In this document: one piece after another, positions 38,045 to 45,995 of the stretch
Layout: every line of letters begins with the position of its first letter
Position numbering within the stretch: position 1 is the stretch's first letter
From: Bifidobacterium sp. ESL0732
Lineage (GTDB): Bacteria > Actinomycetota > Actinomycetes > Actinomycetales > Bifidobacteriaceae
Direction of reading: 5' to 3'
DNA: 64,000 bases
NCBI RefSeq assembly: GCF_029395535.1
Contig: NZ_CP113920.1
Span: 1,736,001 to 1,800,000 of the forward strand
Position numbers and translations under genes: made by a program
The notes under the pieces: generated by a model
What the model was told of the DNA's origin: nothing
What the model saw: only the letters and a program-made list of their open reading frames with translations
Databases searched by the model: none

Positions 38045-40225
38045 TTACACCAATCCGCTATCGATGTGGGCAAAATCGGGAACCTTGTTCCAACGCACCG
38101 TGTAGCCGGCACCATGGGCGCAGAAGACGGAATCGGGCGTGTTTTCAAGATCCGTTTCCGGGCCATAGGCGGTTTGCTTGATGACTTCGTCGGCATTATG
38201 GCAAGGCTGGTAGCCAGCGAAAACACAGGTGAGCGAGCCCTGGCCGTGGGTATAGGCGTTGACGTCCATCGAATAGTCGCGCATTTGCGAAACCGGAGCT
38301 GCACCCTCCAGCTGCGCGTAATCGCCATCGGATTCCGGGGCATCGAAACTGCCGCTCATCCGCTGAATATCGGACATCGCACGGCCCAGCAAGTCCTGCG
38401 GAACCTCGAGACGGAAGCTGTAGTAGGGTTCCAAAAGCCGGCACTCCCCTTTCGCCTTGAGCTCCATCAGGCCTTGCCGAACCGCGCGATAGGTGGCTTC
38501 GCGGAAATCCCCACCTTCCGTATGTTTTTCGTGACCCCGCCCAGCGATCAATGTTATCTTCATATCCGTGATCGGCGAACCCGTAAGGACGCCGAGATGT
38601 TCCTTTTCACGTAAATGGGTCAGAATCGCTCTCTGCCAGTTGCGGTCGAGATCGTCCAGACTGCAGCGGGACTCGAAATGCAGACCGCTGCCAGGTCTGC
38701 CCGGCTCAAGTTTGAGGTGGACTTCGGCATAGTGGCGCAACGGCTCGAAATGGCCGATGCCCTCCACCGGCGCAGTGATGGTCTCGCGATAAAGAATGCC
38801 GCCGGTGTCAAAATGGACGTCGAGGCCGAATCGGTCGTGCATCATCTGGGTGATGATCTCAATCTGCACCGCGCCCATCAGCTGCACGTGGATCTCGCCC
38901 AGCCTCGCCACCCAGCGCACATGCAAGGCCGGATCCTCGTCCTGGAGCGTGCGCAAAGCCACCAAGATCTTGTGCAACTGTGGCGTGACTTCGGCAGGCT
39001 TGGAGGATGGCGGAGTTGAAGACGAATCGTCATTTTGTGTTTCATTGACATGGTTTTGCGACTCGTCGCCCGTTCCCGTTTTGCCCGGCAGAACCGTATA
39101 GGTCAGCACCGGCTGAAGAACCGACTCCCCAGCGTCAGCCTCAAAGCCCAGGCCCTCTCCCGGGAAAGTTTTCGTCAAGCCGGTTACGGCGCACACGTCA
39201 CCGGCGGCGACTTCATCGGCCAGTTCGAACTTAGCGCCCGAATACCGCCGAATCTGGTCGACTTTCTCCTGCCAGATTTCAGTTTCGATTTCGGACAATC
39301 CACTCTCAGATTGAGCACCATTGTTCTTACTCTGATTATCGCTCCCAGAGTTGCCAGATGAGTCATCGCCGGCATGCTTATCGGCATTTTCTGGTTTCCC
39401 GAAATAATCGTCACGCTTATTGCTCAGCGTTTCCTTCACTTTGAGAGTGCCACCGGTGACTTTGAGCCAAGTGAGGCGATTGCCTTGCGCATCGTGGGAG
39501 ATTTTATAGACGCGAGCGCCAAACACACTCGAATAGTTTTTCCGCTTCGTGAATCGTTCGAGCCCAGCAAGGAACTCATCGATGCCCTCGAGCTTCAGCG
39601 CCGACCCGGAATAACAAGGAAAAATCTGACGCTCGGCGACCATCGAACGCAAGGTGTCATCCGAGATTTGGCCGTCGTCCAAAAGCTCGTCCATTGCCGT
39701 GCCGCTCTCGTCAAGCAACGCGACCTCTTCTTGTTCTCCCGGTTCAGCGTCCCCTTCGAAATCAACGCTACCTTCGGAAAACCGCTGTTTCATCTGCGCA
39801 ATCAGTCCGGCTTTATCGGCCCCAGCGGCATCCATTTTATTAATGAAAATAAACGTCGGTACATGGTAGCGGGCCAGCAGGCGCCACAACGTTTCGGTAT
39901 AGCCCTGCAGCCCGTCGTTCGCACCCACCACGAGAATCGCGTAATCCAATACGGTAAGAGTCCGTTCCATTTCGGCCGAAAAATCGACATGCCCAGGCGT
40001 ATCAAGCAAGGTGAATTCAAAATTGCCCTGCCGCAAAATGGCCTGCTTGGAGAAGATGGTGATGCCACGCCGCTTCTCCATCACGTCGGTGTCGAGGAAC
40101 GCGTCGCCGTGATCAACCCGCCCAAGCTTGCGGATGTCGCCGGCTCGATAGAGCATCGCCTCGCACAACGTGGTCTTCCCCGCGTCCACATGCGCCGCGA
40201 TCCCCACCACCGCTCGTCTTGCCAT
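38045..40225 (-). CDS. EF-G/TetM-like translational GTPase
   Basis: This 726-residue GTPase has the order of tetracycline ribosomal-protection proteins and EF-G: G1 AHVDAGKTTL, a RRGITIF G2 region, G3 DTPGHVDF, G4 NKMD and G5 YSGSALKLEG, then domains II-V. Instead of the YSPVS loop that TetM/TetO insert in domain IV, it has GRGHEKHTEGGDFREATYR, the pattern I recall for chromosomal TetM-like factors of unknown role. Two low-complexity inserts rich in Asp, Ser, Asn and Gly (about 280-325 and 385-410) interrupt it. It is divergent from a MarR gene. A real role in tetracycline resistance is unproven. Confidence 0.88.
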   Translation of the reverse strand: MARRAVVGIAAHVDAGKTTLCEAMLYRAGDIRKLGRVDHGDAFLDTDVMEKRRGITIFSKQAILRQGNFEFTLLDTPGHVDFSAEMERTLTVLDYAILVVGANDGLQGYTETLWRLLARYHVPTFIFINKMDAAGADKAGLIAQMKQRFSEGSVDFEGDAEPGEQEEVALLDESGTAMDELLDDGQISDDTLRSMVAERQIFPCYSGSALKLEGIDEFLAGLERFTKRKNYSSVFGARVYKISHDAQGNRLTWLKVTGGTLKVKETLSNKRDDYFGKPENADKHAGDDSSGNSGSDNQSKNNGAQSESGLSEIETEIWQEKVDQIRRYSGAKFELADEVAAGDVCAVTGLTKTFPGEGLGFEADAGESVLQPVLTYTVLPGKTGTGDESQNHVNETQNDDSSSTPPSSKPAEVTPQLHKILVALRTLQDEDPALHVRWVARLGEIHVQLMGAVQIEIITQMMHDRFGLDVHFDTGGILYRETITAPVEGIGHFEPLRHYAEVHLKLEPGRPGSGLHFESRCSLDDLDRNWQRAILTHLREKEHLGVLTGSPITDMKITLIAGRGHEKHTEGGDFREATYRAVRQGLMELKAKGECRLLEPYYSFRLEVPQDLLGRAMSDIQRMSGSFDAPESDGDYAQLEGAAPVSQMRDYSMDVNAYTHGQGSLTCVFAGYQPCHNADEVIKQTAYGPETDLENTPDSVFCAHGAGYTVRWNKVPDFAHIDSGLV

Positions 40226-41706: not shown

Positions 41707-42187
41707 AGCCAAGGAAAACGACGAGCACACGGAAAACAACATCACACGCGAAATGGGCATGGTGAAGCGAGCCAAAAGAATTTGGGAAGAAAGAACAAGC
41801 GACGCCGCTTCACCACACAACCTGCGGATATCCGATCCTCCAGTAAAACCGGACACCGCTTACAACAAGCGAAAGATAAGAGACAAGGCCTTCATCGAAT
41901 CACTGATTACAGTGTACACGCCCTTACCGTCTTTTGCGACACCTTAACAAAGTTTCGTCTCAAAATGCGGGAATTCATCATAAAAAAATAGAAATGCACC
42001 GTTTCGCGCTTTATTCAAGATAGACTGTCCAAAAGGAATTGCGGTAACCTGCCTGCGAATTCCTCAGTTAGCGGAACTTGCTGACGCGCAAACTTGCCGG
42101 ATTGCCGGGGCCGGATTGCCGAGTTGCCGGATTACGGGGACGATACCATACTCCGCTATCCGGCAACCACAACGCTGCGAATGCCTG
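41707..42187. other. intergenic region with GCCGGATT-type repeats
   Basis: No convincing gene lies in these 481 bases. An open frame continuing past the YczE-like gene has no matching family. At 42093-42137 the unit TTGCCGGA is repeated about five times in imperfect tandem, followed by ATCCGGCAA in inverse orientation (42158-42166). The repeats may form a hairpin at the 3' end of the cpfC operon. Confidence 0.45.
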
Positions 42188-43135
42188 CTACTCGGCTCCC
42201 AAAACGGCATCTTCCAACGCGGCGATCAGAAGCGGGTCTGCGTTCGGCATCCGCAGACGACGCAGCCTACCGCCGACGGATTCGATCTCATCCTTCAGCT
42301 CGATGTCGACATCGTCGAGAATTTCAAGATTGTCGGCAATGAAGCCAAGCGAAGCCGAAACGATGGTGGAGATGCCGCCATCTTGGATGAGGTCCTTGGC
42401 GGTTTCCTTGAAATCAGGGCCAATCCAAGGCTCACCGGTGCGTCCGGCGCTCTGCCATGCGATAGTGTATTGTCCATTGCTCAGACCGGCGGCTTTGGCC
42501 ACGGTTTTGGCATTGCCGGTAACCTCATCGAGATAGGGGTCACCACCATTGATGATGCGCATCGGCAGGCTATGGGCGCTGAAAATGACCTCGGTGTCGG
42601 CGCGATCGGTGAGGTCTTTCATGGCGGTCAGTTGGTCGGCCCAGAACCTGATGAGATTCTCGTCTTTCCACCAACTACGAATAGGATGGTAGGCGATTCC
42701 TGGGTGCTTCTTTAACGCCTCCTGCGCACGCTCGTGATAGTTCTCGACGGAGTACACGGAATACTGCGGGGCCAACGGAAGACCATAGACCTCGGTAATC
42801 CCGGCTTCGGCAAACTCGTCGACGGTATCGGCGATATAGGGCTTAATGTATTTGAATCCCTTGCGAACGACGTATTCGCCGGGATGATCGCGATCGAGCG
42901 CAGCCTGAAGGCCCGCGACCTGATCGTCAGTGATCTTGGCGAGCGGCGAGGTGCCGCCGATGGCTTCGTAACGACCGGCCAGTTCGTCGAACAGCGCTTG
43001 AGACGGCTTGACGCCATGACGGATATTGGTGTAATAACCCATCAGGTCCTCCGTTTTGTACGGGGTGCCGTAGGCCATTAGGAGCACCGCCTTTTTCTGG
43101 GCGGATGATGCGTTGTCGGAATGTTTACTTGTCAT
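42188..43135 (-). CDS. cpfC: coproporphyrin III ferrochelatase
   Basis: This enzyme inserts Fe(II) into coproporphyrin III to form coprohaem. The 315-residue protein has AVLLMAYGTPYKTEDLMGYY with the proximal Tyr region, RYEAIGGTSPLA, the catalytic His near 188 in FSAHSLPMRI, WQSAGRTGEPWIGPD and the conserved Glu in GFIADNLEIL. It contains no Cys at all, so it lacks the [2Fe-2S] cluster common in actinobacterial homologues. The overall pattern recalls Firmicute CpfC, which hints at horizontal acquisition. It is the last gene of an operon: its ATG lies inside the end of the MFS gene (11-base overlap). Confidence 0.93.
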   Translation of the reverse strand: MTSKHSDNASSAQKKAVLLMAYGTPYKTEDLMGYYTNIRHGVKPSQALFDELAGRYEAIGGTSPLAKITDDQVAGLQAALDRDHPGEYVVRKGFKYIKPYIADTVDEFAEAGITEVYGLPLAPQYSVYSVENYHERAQEALKKHPGIAYHPIRSWWKDENLIRFWADQLTAMKDLTDRADTEVIFSAHSLPMRIINGGDPYLDEVTGNAKTVAKAAGLSNGQYTIAWQSAGRTGEPWIGPDFKETAKDLIQDGGISTIVSASLGFIADNLEILDDVDIELKDEIESVGGRLRRLRMPNADPLLIAALEDAVLGAE

Positions 43136-44561
43136 AATCGATGTTTCCTTTGTTGAAGGGGATAAATAGGGTCAGCACAATGCACACCACGGCGACCGCC
43201 AGCGCGACCATGAACATGGCGCGGAAGGAGGTCAACGTCGGATTGCCGTTCACGCTGCCGACAAGCATGGCCGAGGCGAAGACGAGCGGAGCGATGGTCA
43301 TGCCGATTTTCTTGCAGGCCGAGACACCACCGATGGCCTGCATACGTTGGTCGGGTGCGGCCAAACGGCCGGCGATGACCTGCAGCGGCGAGGACATGAA
43401 GGCACCAAGGCCGAGGCCGAACAGCGTCGACAGCGCAAAGAACGCCGGCAGGCTACTGGAAGTCAGAAGAATGCCGATAACGGAAATACCATTGATGGCG
43501 CTCGAGACGATCAGAGCCTTCTTGTTGCCGAGTTTGTCGACGAAAACGCCGCCGACGTACGAACCGACCAGGCTGCCCAGCCCGGTGCCCATCATGGTCA
43601 TGCCGGAAAGCGCCTTGGAAAGGTGGAAGACGGCGTGGACGTAGGTGGGAATATAGATGAAAAGCGAGAAGAGACTGCCGCCGACCATCGCCAGTACAAG
43701 GGTCAGCACATAGGAACGATTGCGGAACAGGCTGATCGGCAGGAACGGCATCGTGCCCTTATCGAGCTTCTTTTCGGAGTATAGGAAGAGCAGAAACGCG
43801 ACCACGGCGACCGCGAAGAGTGCGAGGACGATGACCCAATACTGTCTGAAATGCTGGCTTAACGTGATGCCGAGCATCAACGTCAACAGCGCCACGGAGA
43901 AGGAGCACAGGCCAGCCAGATCCGTCTTGGTGCTCGTCGCCGCAAGCTGGTTGTCCATGACGAACCAGGCCATCACGAAGAGGATGAGCAGGACGGGAAG
44001 CATGCCGTAATAGAAGACACGCCAGTTTTTGGCCATCCCGATCGCCATGCCTGCCAGGGCCGGTCCGGCCACGGCGGAAAGTCCCGCGACCACGCCGACG
44101 AAGGAGACCCTGCGCCCTTGGTGGTTCTTGCGCGCGGCCTGCATCAGCTCGCTCATCGCGAGCACCATGATGCCGCTGTCGCCGATGGCCTGGATGAAGC
44201 GGCCCGCGAGCATCAGCGGGTATAGAGGTGCAAGCGCGATGATCAGGCAACCGACGAACCAGAGGCCGAGCTCCCAGAGGAAGACCTTCTTGGTGCCGCG
44301 GGTGTCGGAAAGGTTCGCCATGATCGGGGTGCCCACCACGAGACCCAGCGTGTAGATGCCTGCCACCCACGAGGAGCCCAGCGTGGTCAGACCGAAGGTC
44401 TTGCTAATCGAGGAAAGCAGGGTGCCGGCCGAACCGCTGTCAAGCTGCGTGACGAAAACGACCAGCGCATAGAACCAGATCGGGGTTTTGCGCACGGCTT
44501 TCCCCAAGGTCTTCGCCGCCTCGGATGCCTTGGCTTGAGCTTGGGGCACAGCATCACTCAT
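43125..44561 (-). CDS. MFS transporter within haem operon
   Basis: This 478-residue protein has 12-14 predicted helices. MFS motif A appears as IMANLSDTRGTKKVFLW after helix 2 and again as VFVDKLGNKKALIV, with GRFIQAIGDSGI at motif B. It resembles DHA-type drug/proton antiporters, yet it overlaps chdC upstream (8 bases, ATGAGTGA) and cpfC downstream (11 bases), so it is translated in step with the two haem enzymes. Uptake of coproporphyrin III or coproporphyrinogen, or export of haem or porphyrin, are the plausible roles (inference). The start ATG 44561 excludes 42 upstream Pro/His-rich codons. Confidence 0.88.
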   Translation of the reverse strand: MSDAVPQAQAKASEAAKTLGKAVRKTPIWFYALVVFVTQLDSGSAGTLLSSISKTFGLTTLGSSWVAGIYTLGLVVGTPIMANLSDTRGTKKVFLWELGLWFVGCLIIALAPLYPLMLAGRFIQAIGDSGIMVLAMSELMQAARKNHQGRRVSFVGVVAGLSAVAGPALAGMAIGMAKNWRVFYYGMLPVLLILFVMAWFVMDNQLAATSTKTDLAGLCSFSVALLTLMLGITLSQHFRQYWVIVLALFAVAVVAFLLFLYSEKKLDKGTMPFLPISLFRNRSYVLTLVLAMVGGSLFSLFIYIPTYVHAVFHLSKALSGMTMMGTGLGSLVGSYVGGVFVDKLGNKKALIVSSAINGISVIGILLTSSSLPAFFALSTLFGLGLGAFMSSPLQVIAGRLAAPDQRMQAIGGVSACKKIGMTIAPLVFASAMLVGSVNGNPTLTSFRAMFMVALAVAVVCIVLTLFIPFNKGNIDYDK

Positions 44562-45456
44562 GATGTTCGGCCCTTGGGGCTGACACGGATGGAGATGCGG
44601 AGGCGGATGCGGCAATGCCAGATGGCGAAGAAACAGGTTCTTCGGCCCCTGCGGCAATGATCTCGCCCTCCAGGGTGTGGCGGGCACCCGGCTTCGGGCG
44701 GCTTATTTCCCAGCCATCAAGGAAGAAGTGATCCAGATCTTCGACAGGAAGGTACGTGCCTGATACGAAATAAGGGAAATCACCATAAATGGAGCTGGCT
44801 TCGGCGTAACGCATCGCCTCGATAATCTTCTTGAAGACCAGCGGGTCATCGGCCAGCAGCAAGACGCCCCATTCGTGGTCGTCAAGGCCCATCGCGCCGG
44901 TAATGAACGGCAGCACACGGCCGCCGAACGACCGGCCGATCTTGCCGTGATCCTTCATATAGGCCTGCCGTTGCTCGAAGGGAAGCGTGTACCAGTTGGC
45001 ACCCGGGTTACGGGTTTTGGACATCGGGTAGAAGCAGACATATGGCTTCTTCGGCAGCTTCGGCTTGACCGCGCGGTTGACATAGGCCCAGCCGCGATCG
45101 CTTTTCGGCTTGCCAGAATAGGTGCCGGCTTCGCCGATGGAAACGAACGAACCAGCTCTGGTCAGATACGCCGAAAGTGGCAACTTTGCCAAGCGGTTTT
45201 CGATTTCGTTGAGCTCGTCAAGCGTCTCGCGGTAGAGAATGAGACCCAGGTCGCCCTTGGTGCCGCTGACATCGAAGAGGTACCAGCTGCCTTTGCCCGC
45301 CTCCTCGTTGGCCTCGAATTCGGCGAGCATCTGCTTGAACTGGCTGACTTCGTTGCGTTGCGCCTCGGGGCTCTGCTTTTGGAACGACGGCCAATCCATC
45401 TTCCACCACAGGTCCAGGCAGTACCAGCCATCCAATGTCGCTACTGGCTCTTGCAT
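44554..45456 (-). CDS. chdC: coprohaem decarboxylase (HemQ/ChdC, chlorite-dismutase family)
   Basis: The enzyme decarboxylates two propionates of coprohaem to give protohaem b, using peroxide. The 300-residue protein has the signature CFYPMSKTRNPGANWYTLP with the catalytic Tyr near 143, KDHGKIGRSFGGRV with the proximal His near 160, GLDDHEWGVLLLADDPL and MRYAEASSIYGDFPYFVSG. About 35 C-terminal residues form a Ser/Ala/Pro-rich tail. AGGAG lies about nine bases before the ATG. It is the first gene of the chdC-MFS-cpfC operon. A 16-bp near-palindrome about 170 bases upstream could be an operator. No earlier haem genes are present in the window. Confidence 0.93.
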   Translation of the reverse strand: MQEPVATLDGWYCLDLWWKMDWPSFQKQSPEAQRNEVSQFKQMLAEFEANEEAGKGSWYLFDVSGTKGDLGLILYRETLDELNEIENRLAKLPLSAYLTRAGSFVSIGEAGTYSGKPKSDRGWAYVNRAVKPKLPKKPYVCFYPMSKTRNPGANWYTLPFEQRQAYMKDHGKIGRSFGGRVLPFITGAMGLDDHEWGVLLLADDPLVFKKIIEAMRYAEASSIYGDFPYFVSGTYLPVEDLDHFFLDGWEISRPKPGARHTLEGEIIAAGAEEPVSSPSGIAASASASPSVSAPRAEHHE

Positions 45457-45995
45457 ATCTCATCTCTCCTTAGCTTGTATGCGGATATGCCCGCTGGACC
45501 ACGGCACGGCGCTGTTGCACGTCATTGTCGACAAGACCAGTCAGATACATCCGACAGGTTACGTCAAACCTTATATGCCACATCTATAATTGCATCGGCT
45601 ATTACCGCTTTACGACCAATGCAACTATCGATATCGACAGTGAAAACCTCAATAAAACAACGAAAACAGTCATCTTATCGAAAATCTTCAAATAAAATTA
45701 CCGCAGACAAATAAATAAAAGTCTGCTATAATAGCTATTAGAAGGTTTGACTTCTCAAGTCACAAGAGTTATGTTACACGTTCCAAATCACTTTTGAGAC
45801 GTTTCGATAATATTTAGTCTCAAAACAAGTTATTCCGCGGATTTTCCGGCGTGTCGCACTTTAGAAGGGCGACATCGCGTCGCAATCGAGAGACCAAAAA
45901 CGACTCATACTGACCCATAATTATCGAAAGATACCATGGATATTCGTACTGTATCTTTTAGCAAGGTGTGTTAGCGCAAGCGCTCAATACGAAAA
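45457..45995. other. long AT-rich intergenic region with inverted repeats
   Basis: No gene is seen. A near-palindrome CTATCGATATCGACAG (45625-45640) lies upstream of chdC. On the plus strand an extended -10 TGCTATAAT (45724-45732) is followed by several inverted repeats: TGACTT/AAGTCA at about 45749-45763, TTTGAGAC/GTCTCAAA at about 45795-45826 and AAGATAC/GTATCTT at about 45929-45958. A small structured RNA is possible but unproven. Confidence 0.4.

What the first reader, a model, noticed from the sequence alone, without database searches (positions are those of the whole stretch)
42188..45456. Haem made from scavenged coproporphyrin: a chdC-MFS-cpfC operon
Seen: three reading frames overlap (8 and 11 bases) in the order ChdC, MFS carrier, CpfC. 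Known: CpfC and ChdC are the iron-insertion and decarboxylation steps of the coproporphyrin-dependent haem pathway. Bifidobacteria are generally regarded as unable to make haem. Inference: the organism imports coproporphyrin III released by neighbours, using the coupled MFS protein, and finishes haem b itself. CpfC has no Cys and looks Firmicute-like, so the operon may have been acquired. The MFS could instead export surplus porphyrin.
Basis: partly seen in the sequence, partly recalled or inferred. Interest (0 to 1): 0.8.

Follow-up and report, generated by a model that had tools for sequence, protein, structure and literature searches.

The report
Partial haem operon with MFS carrier
This bifidobacterium lacks key genes for making porphyrins but carries the last two haem-making enzymes in one operon with an uncharacterised membrane carrier, a three-gene set also seen on plasmids of lactic acid bacteria, so the carrier is a good, still untested, candidate for importing the missing porphyrin.

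Summary
The operon is real: chdC (45456-44554), an MFS carrier (ATG 44561-43125) and cpfC (43135-42188), overlapping by 8 and 11 bases. CpfC and ChdC keep their main catalytic residues. The single-contig genome (2.39 Mb) gave no match for HemB or HemE and none over cut-off for CgoX, but has catalase and cytochrome bd. So the named refutation (a complete upstream pathway) fails, and porphyrin should come from outside. ChdC occurs in 9 of 112 genomes of the genus (one copy decayed); all 9 have the MFS and cydA. The same gene order occurs in 13 genomes of a second Bifidobacteriaceae genus, and intact on plasmids of Lactococcus and Enterococcus. The MFS was not found in 395 other sampled Actinomycetota. 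This suggests a transferable haem-finishing cassette. Import of coproporphyrin III by the MFS is the best reading (about 0.55) but is not shown: its nearest solved relatives are mostly exporters, and in all four Lactobacillaceae plasmids opened chdC is broken while MFS and cpfC are open. That Bifidobacterium asteroides holds final haem steps was printed in 2012. New here are the linked carrier, its distribution and the plasmid versions. Four relatives carry two extra cpfC paralogues that lost three coproporphyrin-contacting residues.

The parts
44554..45456 (-). chdC: coproheme decarboxylase (300 aa, Bacillota type, with a ~50-aa Ser/Ala/Pro-rich C-terminal tail)
   Evidence: PF06778 and NCBIfam PRK12276; catalytic Tyr, Lys and proximal His kept; phmmer 7e-60 to Geobacillus HemQ
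43125..44561 (-). MFS carrier (478 aa), proposed porphyrin transporter; substrate and direction not shown
   Evidence: PF07690; found in the same 9 of 112 genomes as chdC; lies between chdC and cpfC in the 8 intact g1 loci and 13 g5 loci examined
42188..43135 (-). cpfC: coproporphyrin III ferrochelatase (315 aa, no Cys)
   Evidence: PF00762/TIGR00109; 41% identical to B. subtilis CpfC, metal-site and propionate-binding residues kept
45457..45825 (-). leader/promoter region of the operon, with ribosome-binding site AAGGAG, a palindrome GACTTGAGAAGTC (45749-45761) and a 34-bp palindrome (45792-45825)
   Evidence: blocks conserved in relatives; motif positions
41932..41965 (.). second copy of the 34-bp palindrome TTTTG(A/C)GAC-N16-GTCTCAAAA, on the EF-G side of the operon
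   Evidence: only two places in the whole genome match the pattern used; an operon-free site in G087 keeps a copy here

Best explanation
The operon is a haem-finishing salvage cassette. The MFS protein takes up coproporphyrin III (or a metal chelate of it) released by other cells. CpfC inserts ferrous iron to give coproheme, and ChdC removes two propionates with hydrogen peroxide to give haem b, which serves catalase and cytochrome bd. Shown by sequence: the three linked genes, the catalytic residues of both enzymes, no match for HemB and HemE and none over cut-off for CgoX, and the presence of haem users. Inferred: both enzyme activities (from the families), the external porphyrin source (from the missing genes), and the substrate and direction of the MFS (from linkage, co-occurrence and distribution only).
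For: No de novo route found: HemB 0 of 112 genus genomes with 11 of 14 controls ringing; HemE not in own genome, 7 of 14 controls ringing; CgoX model 0 of 112 over cut-off, 4 of 14 controls over it. Haem users: cydA and catalase in own genome. All 9 ChdC genomes (G082, decayed, counted) have cydA against 16 of 103 without ChdC, and 8 of 9 have catalase against 6 of 103 (Fisher 4e-7 and 5e-8; relatedness not corrected). MFS matches at E <= 1e-60 in the genus are exactly the 9 ChdC genomes. The MFS is in 23 of 189 family genomes and in none of the 7 that have HemB; of 396 sampled Actinomycetota only own genome has it (at most 8 and 4 best candidates per genome were scored). The same order stands intact on one L. 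lactis and one E. faecalis plasmid. CpfC Tyr13, Arg30, Arg46, Tyr47, Ser54, His183 and Glu264 are kept in 25 of 25 cassette CpfC1 rows, 24 of them distinct; Listeria Tyr12, Arg29, Arg45, Tyr46, Ser53, His182 and Glu263, which I take as their equivalents, are described as ring-, metal- or propionate-contacting in PMC7340540 (passages). ChdC Tyr, Lys and His are kept in 23 of 23 full-length ChdC. The MFS has a Lys pair (K417-K418) kept in 25 of 25 rows, even in the L. lactis copy 31% identical.
Against: The structures nearest the MFS by profile are QacA, EmrB and EfpA exporters and a triacylglyceride transporter. The Asp at position 41 that I recall as the DHA2 proton-coupling residue is in 25 of 25 rows, and the Gly-Pro that I recall as part of the antiporter motif is kept in the window protein and its 6 close relatives, though lost in the other 18 of 25 rows. 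In all 4 Lactobacillaceae plasmids opened chdC is truncated or interrupted while MFS and cpfC are open (and, for the stop in L. reuteri), so the pair is kept without a working neighbouring chdC. Another L. reuteri strain, HDB, is listed with chromosomal hemA, hemL, hemB, hemC and hemH in PMC13132842 (passages), so that plasmid's host is not necessarily porphyrin-free. 16 of 103 genomes without ChdC have cydA, so other bifidobacteria must obtain haem some other way, perhaps as haem itself. ChdC Arg130 (0 of 23) and Gln184 (2 of 23; chain numbering) are not kept. A haem importer in own genome was not searched for.
Confidence: 0.55

Rival explanations
1. The MFS is an exporter that removes surplus or toxic porphyrin, coproheme or haem, while the porphyrin enters by another route and CpfC and ChdC complete haem.
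For: Nearest solved relatives are mostly efflux proteins; Asp41 is in 25 of 25 rows and the window protein keeps the Gly-Pro of the recalled antiporter motif. In decayed cassettes the MFS outlives chdC: 4 of 4 Lactobacillaceae plasmids opened, and G082, whose chdC has a stop and whose cpfC is a fragment, keeps an MFS frame without stops.
Against: A cell without HemB makes no porphyrin surplus of its own. The Gly before Pro in that motif is Ala or Ser in 18 of 25 rows. The gene was not found in the 395 other Actinomycetota sampled, where complete haem makers that would need such an exporter should be common; HemB was not checked in those genomes.
Confidence: 0.25
2. The MFS carries another ligand (for instance haem itself, an iron chelate or an unrelated drug), and its place in the operon is only co-regulation.
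For: No member with a known substrate was met here; the NCBIfam scan gives 44 families, and the 25 shown are all below their curated cut-offs.
Against: The MFS is linked with chdC and cpfC across two Bifidobacteriaceae genera and, counting remnants of chdC, in Lactobacillaceae, Lactococcus and Enterococcus, down to 31% MFS identity.
Confidence: 0.15
3. The operon is a non-functional relic and the organism imports finished haem.
For: One relative (G082, a metagenome assembly) has a broken chdC and only a cpfC fragment. Catalase- and cydA-bearing relatives without ChdC exist, so haem import in the genus is likely.
Against: In own genome all three frames are open and overlapping and catalytic residues are intact. 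Against three g1 relatives compared, ChdC is 88-90%, MFS 84-92% and CpfC 73-91% identical.
Confidence: 0.05

Closest known systems
Coproporphyrin-dependent (CPD) haem pathway of Bacillota and Actinomycetota (CgoX/CgoN, CpfC, ChdC)
   Same: CpfC and ChdC with their active-site residues
   Different: Only the last two enzymes were found; no match for HemB and HemE, CgoX not over cut-off; a carrier sits inside the operon
Bifidobacterium asteroides PRL2011 respiratory gene set (PMC3447821, passages read)
   Same: cytochrome bd, catalase and final haem steps in an insect bifidobacterium
   Different: The text speaks of final steps from coproporphyrinogen III and of tests with protoporphyrin and hemin; the word ferrochelatase does not occur in it, and the passages seen name no carrier or coproporphyrin uptake
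Leucobacter sp. ASN212, which needs heme or coproporphyrins released by Sphingopyxis (known to me only as cited in PMC6868719 and PMC12285269, passages)
   Same: An actinobacterium said to grow on externally supplied coproporphyrin
   Different: Its genes were not examined here. Two other Leucobacter strains, GP and HA-1, were not rescued by such supplements (same passages)
chdC-MFS-cpfC on plasmids of Lactococcus lactis and Enterococcus faecalis, and MFS-cpfC with a broken chdC on four Lactobacillaceae plasmids
   Same: Same gene order and families
   Different: MFS 47-48% (Lactobacillaceae) and 31% (L. lactis) identical to the window's; plasmid-borne, with insertion sequences nearby in the annotated records
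DHA2 multidrug exporters (EmrB, QacA, EfpA)
   Same: MFS fold, weak profile similarity
   Different: Scores below the curated cut-off of the EmrB model (123 against 230 bits)

Membership tests
Coproporphyrin III ferrochelatase (CpfC) | Ferrochelatase family match over cut-off | tested here: met
   PF00762 245.4 bits (27) and TIGR00109 213 (124.6); below the stricter PRK12435 subfamily cut-off (295.5 against 455)
Coproporphyrin III ferrochelatase (CpfC) | Metal-site His/Glu, proximal Tyr and the propionate-binding residues described for Listeria CpfC | tested here: met
   His183, Glu264, Tyr13, Arg30, Arg46, Tyr47, Ser54 and Tyr125 (B. subtilis numbering) are all present in the window protein; residue roles from PMC7340540 (passages), the shift by one between the numberings is mine
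Coproheme decarboxylase (ChdC/HemQ) | Family match over cut-off | tested here: met
   PF06778 166.4 (25); NCBIfam PRK12276 254.3 (253), narrowly over; the actinobacterial HemQ model only 55.8 (235)
Coproheme decarboxylase (ChdC/HemQ) | Catalytic Tyr and proximal His | tested here: met
   Tyr, Lys and His kept in 23 of 23 full-length proteins; Arg130 in 0 of 23 and Gln184 in 2 of 23; residue roles recalled
Complete CPD haem pathway | Porphobilinogen synthase HemB and uroporphyrinogen decarboxylase HemE | tested here: not met
   No match in own genome
Complete CPD haem pathway | Coproporphyrinogen oxidase CgoX or CgoN | tested here: inconclusive
   TIGR00562 matches all 112 genomes weakly but none over cut-off; own genome's listed match covers positions 2-73 of 470 (list cut). 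CgoN (YtpQ) was not searched
EmrB/QacA-type DHA2 drug exporters | EmrB subfamily score over curated cut-off | tested here: not met
   TIGR00711 123.2 bits against 230.2
Coproporphyrin importer | Measured porphyrin uptake | not testable with these tools
   Needs transport or growth assays

The most novel reading that the evidence does not exclude
The MFS protein is a dedicated coproporphyrin importer, and chdC-MFS-cpfC is a transferable haem-completion kit shared between lactic acid bacteria plasmids and bifidobacteria, letting fermenters without porphyrin synthesis switch on respiration and catalase by scavenging a neighbour's coproporphyrin. In some bifidobacteria the kit has grown two further ferrochelatase paralogues that may take other tetrapyrroles.
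Probability: 0.42. Interest if true: 0.82.

Novelty: new variant of a known kind. Interest (0 to 1): 0.64.

Why it matters
Coproporphyrin has been reported as a growth factor passed between bacteria (as cited in PMC6868719 and PMC11139205, passages), but none of the titles and abstract starts listed in my searches (long lists were cut) announces a coproporphyrin importer. This operon supplies a specific candidate gene in cultivable genera. It would give a genetic basis for porphyrin cross-feeding in bifidobacteria and dairy lactic acid bacteria, and could explain strain-to-strain differences in haem-dependent respiration and catalase.

Tried and rejected
Idea that the two 34-bp palindromes are the ends of a mobile element: the operon-free site in G087 keeps one copy, but its long similarity to operon-bearing sites is on the EF-G side (88% over 191 bp to own genome, 87% over 229 bp to G085), with only short matches on the copA side. 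G093 gives only short matches. The palindrome lies 336 bp before the chdC start in the window and 267-349 bp before the EF-G frame in G083, G085, G090, G091 and G087, but 911 bp in G093 and 1707 bp in the window, where a MarR and a YczE-like gene lie between. An operator or leader element is therefore likelier, unproven. Idea that the 1199-aa ORF inside the bracket in G085 (1240 aa in G090) is a surface porphyrin receptor: no family match over cut-off and no surface signature that I saw. Shared motif with the stretches around cydA and catalase: none found. The weak CgoX matches in all 112 genomes were read as FAD-binding starts of other proteins, an inference. URO-D matches in 20 of 112 genomes include none of the ChdC genomes. 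Structure prediction was not run: the folds are known and the tool offers no coordinates for a cavity analysis. Lactobacillales genomes at large could not be searched for the MFS, because the search centre must be a genome handle. A literature search for strain ESL0784 found nothing.
Full report
What is there. On the minus strand, chdC (45456-44554), an MFS gene (ATG 44561 to 43125) and cpfC (43135-42188) overlap by 8 and 11 bases. Pfam and NCBIfam agree on both enzymes and place the carrier in the MFS. ChdC scores 254 bits (cut-off 253) on the model PRK12276, which I recall as the Bacillota type, and 56 (235) on the actinobacterial HemQ model. CpfC is 41% identical to B. subtilis CpfC and has no cysteine. 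Of the 11 CpfC positions tested, the window protein matches B. subtilis at 10; Arg31 is His, as in 23 of 25 rows. ChdC keeps the catalytic Tyr, Lys and proximal His in 23 of 23 full-length proteins, but not Arg130 (0 of 23) or Gln184 (2 of 23).

Can the organism make porphyrin? The window lies in a single-contig 2.39 Mb genome of 98.9% completeness. HemB was found in 0 of 112 genomes of the genus, with 11 of 14 controls positive. HemE was not found in own genome, with 7 of 14 controls positive. The CgoX model gave weak matches in 112 of 112 but none over cut-off; 13 of 14 controls match and 4 are over it. Own genome has cytochrome bd subunit I and catalase. HemA, HemL, HemC, HemD and the oxygen-independent oxidase CgoN (PMC10965808, passages) were not searched.

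Who else has it? ChdC and ferrochelatase models match the same 9 of 112 genomes, ferrochelatase over cut-off in 8. The MFS profile at E <= 1e-60 matches exactly these 9 in the genus, plus 14 genomes of a second genus (23 of 189 family genomes), and only own genome among 396 Actinomycetota drawn across the phylum. In these two searches only the best 8 and 4 candidates of each genome were scored, so a missed orthologue is possible. Of the 14, 13 have complete chdC-MFS-cpfC and one (G125) a truncated MFS, a cpfC and no chdC beside it. HemB occurs in 7 of the 189 family genomes, all of another genus, and none of these has the MFS. All 9 ChdC genomes have cydA against 16 of 103 others; 8 of 9 have catalase against 6 of 103. 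These tests ignore relatedness. The 16 cydA genomes without ChdC show that haem can be obtained otherwise.

Plasmids. ChdC matches 31 plasmid records, all under 60% identity, led by Lactococcus (11) and Lactiplantibacillus (8). The MFS matches 200 records, of which 20 were listed: 11 Lactobacillaceae records at about 48%, then Lactococcus and Enterococcus at about 30%. I opened six records. One L. lactis and one E. faecalis plasmid carry intact chdC-MFS-cpfC; four Lactobacillaceae plasmids carry MFS-cpfC with chdC truncated (three) or, in L. reuteri, interrupted by a stop, and insertion sequences are annotated nearby. The CpfC tree joins Lactobacillaceae plasmid copies with the bifidobacterial ones (100/98 for the 31-row group) apart from L. 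lactis, E. faecalis and B. subtilis, and puts G002 with the second genus rather than with its own (99/97); identities of all three genes say the same of G002. This points to horizontal spread of the whole set, with the direction unresolved. No tree of ChdC or MFS was built.

The carrier. It is a DHA2-like MFS protein that does not reach the EmrB cut-off. Its nearest structures are a triacylglyceride transporter, QacA, EmrB and EfpA. Asp41, Arg121 and a Lys pair 417-418 are invariant in 25 of 25 cassette members. The Lys pair could bind carboxylates, but that is inference. The Gly-Pro that I recall from the antiporter motif is kept in the window protein and six close relatives and lost in 18 of 25 rows, so it does not decide the direction. 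The decay of chdC beside open MFS and cpfC on Lactobacillaceae plasmids argues that MFS plus CpfC is useful without the neighbouring chdC; it fits import if chdC lies elsewhere, and also fits other roles. I therefore put import at 0.55 and export at 0.25.

Extra paralogues. G083, G085, G090 and G091 have two more ferrochelatase genes behind cpfC. They form one clade. They keep His183, Glu264, Ser54, Lys87 and Tyr125 but lost Tyr13, Arg30 and Arg46; the Listeria equivalents of the lost three contact the ring or propionates 6 and 7 (PMC7340540, passages). A different tetrapyrrole or metal is the obvious guess, untested.

What was known. PMC3447821 (passages) says B. [quoted passage not shown] Coproporphyrin as a growth factor for Leucobacter ASN212 is cited in PMC6868719 (passages) and PMC12285269 (passages), which also report two other Leucobacter strains that were not rescued. 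PMC10991733 (passages) treats regulation of the pathway; the word export does not occur in it. In the listings of searches I saw no title or abstract start on this MFS or on a bifidobacterial chdC. Three of those lists were cut (20 of 28, 15 of 56 and 15 of 2,328 papers shown), most listed papers were not opened, and the library holds open-licence papers only.

Verdict. A real, conserved, probably transferred haem-finishing operon in organisms without a found route to porphyrin; enzymes ordinary, carrier new and testable.

Noticed in passing
L067, L069, L071, L072 (G083, G085, G090, G091), behind cpfC: Two extra ferrochelatase paralogues in tandem that keep the metal-site His and Glu but lost Tyr13, Arg30 and Arg46 (B. 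subtilis numbering); they form a separate clade.
   Followed up: partly
window 41932-41965 and 45792-45825: A 34-bp palindrome TTTTG(A/C)GAC-N16-GTCTCAAAA matches at exactly two places in the 2.39 Mb genome, one upstream of chdC and one on the EF-G side; relatives G087 and G093 without the operon keep one copy between copA and the EF-G gene. It looks like an operator or leader element.
   Followed up: partly
L127 and L133 (G082, G090): The same palindrome lies about 115-175 bp before the listed start of an unidentified frame that contains MG(K/R)LSE, suggesting a small shared regulon; the frame was not matched to a family.
   Followed up: no
window 45749-45761: Perfect 13-bp palindrome GACTTGAGAAGTC in the chdC leader, conserved in six of the seven genomes aligned, own included.
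   Followed up: no
window 38045-40225: EF-G-like protein resembling tetracycline ribosomal protection proteins but far below their cut-off (381 against 775 bits); it lies near the operon in the seven g1 relatives other than G002.
   Followed up: no
L068:13066-17074 (G084): A SIR2-like and HerA-like anti-phage type gene pair sits about 600 bp beyond the palindrome beside the operon.
   Followed up: no
window 44554-44700: ChdC of the window's clade is 289-313 aa with a low-complexity C-terminal tail; G002, second-genus and L. lactis copies are 249-252 aa.
   Followed up: no
seven genomes among G152-G160 (genus g6), e.g. L122: 7 of 189 Bifidobacteriaceae genomes carry HemB at E 1e-143 to 1e-146, so one genus of the family may keep a tetrapyrrole pathway.
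   Followed up: no
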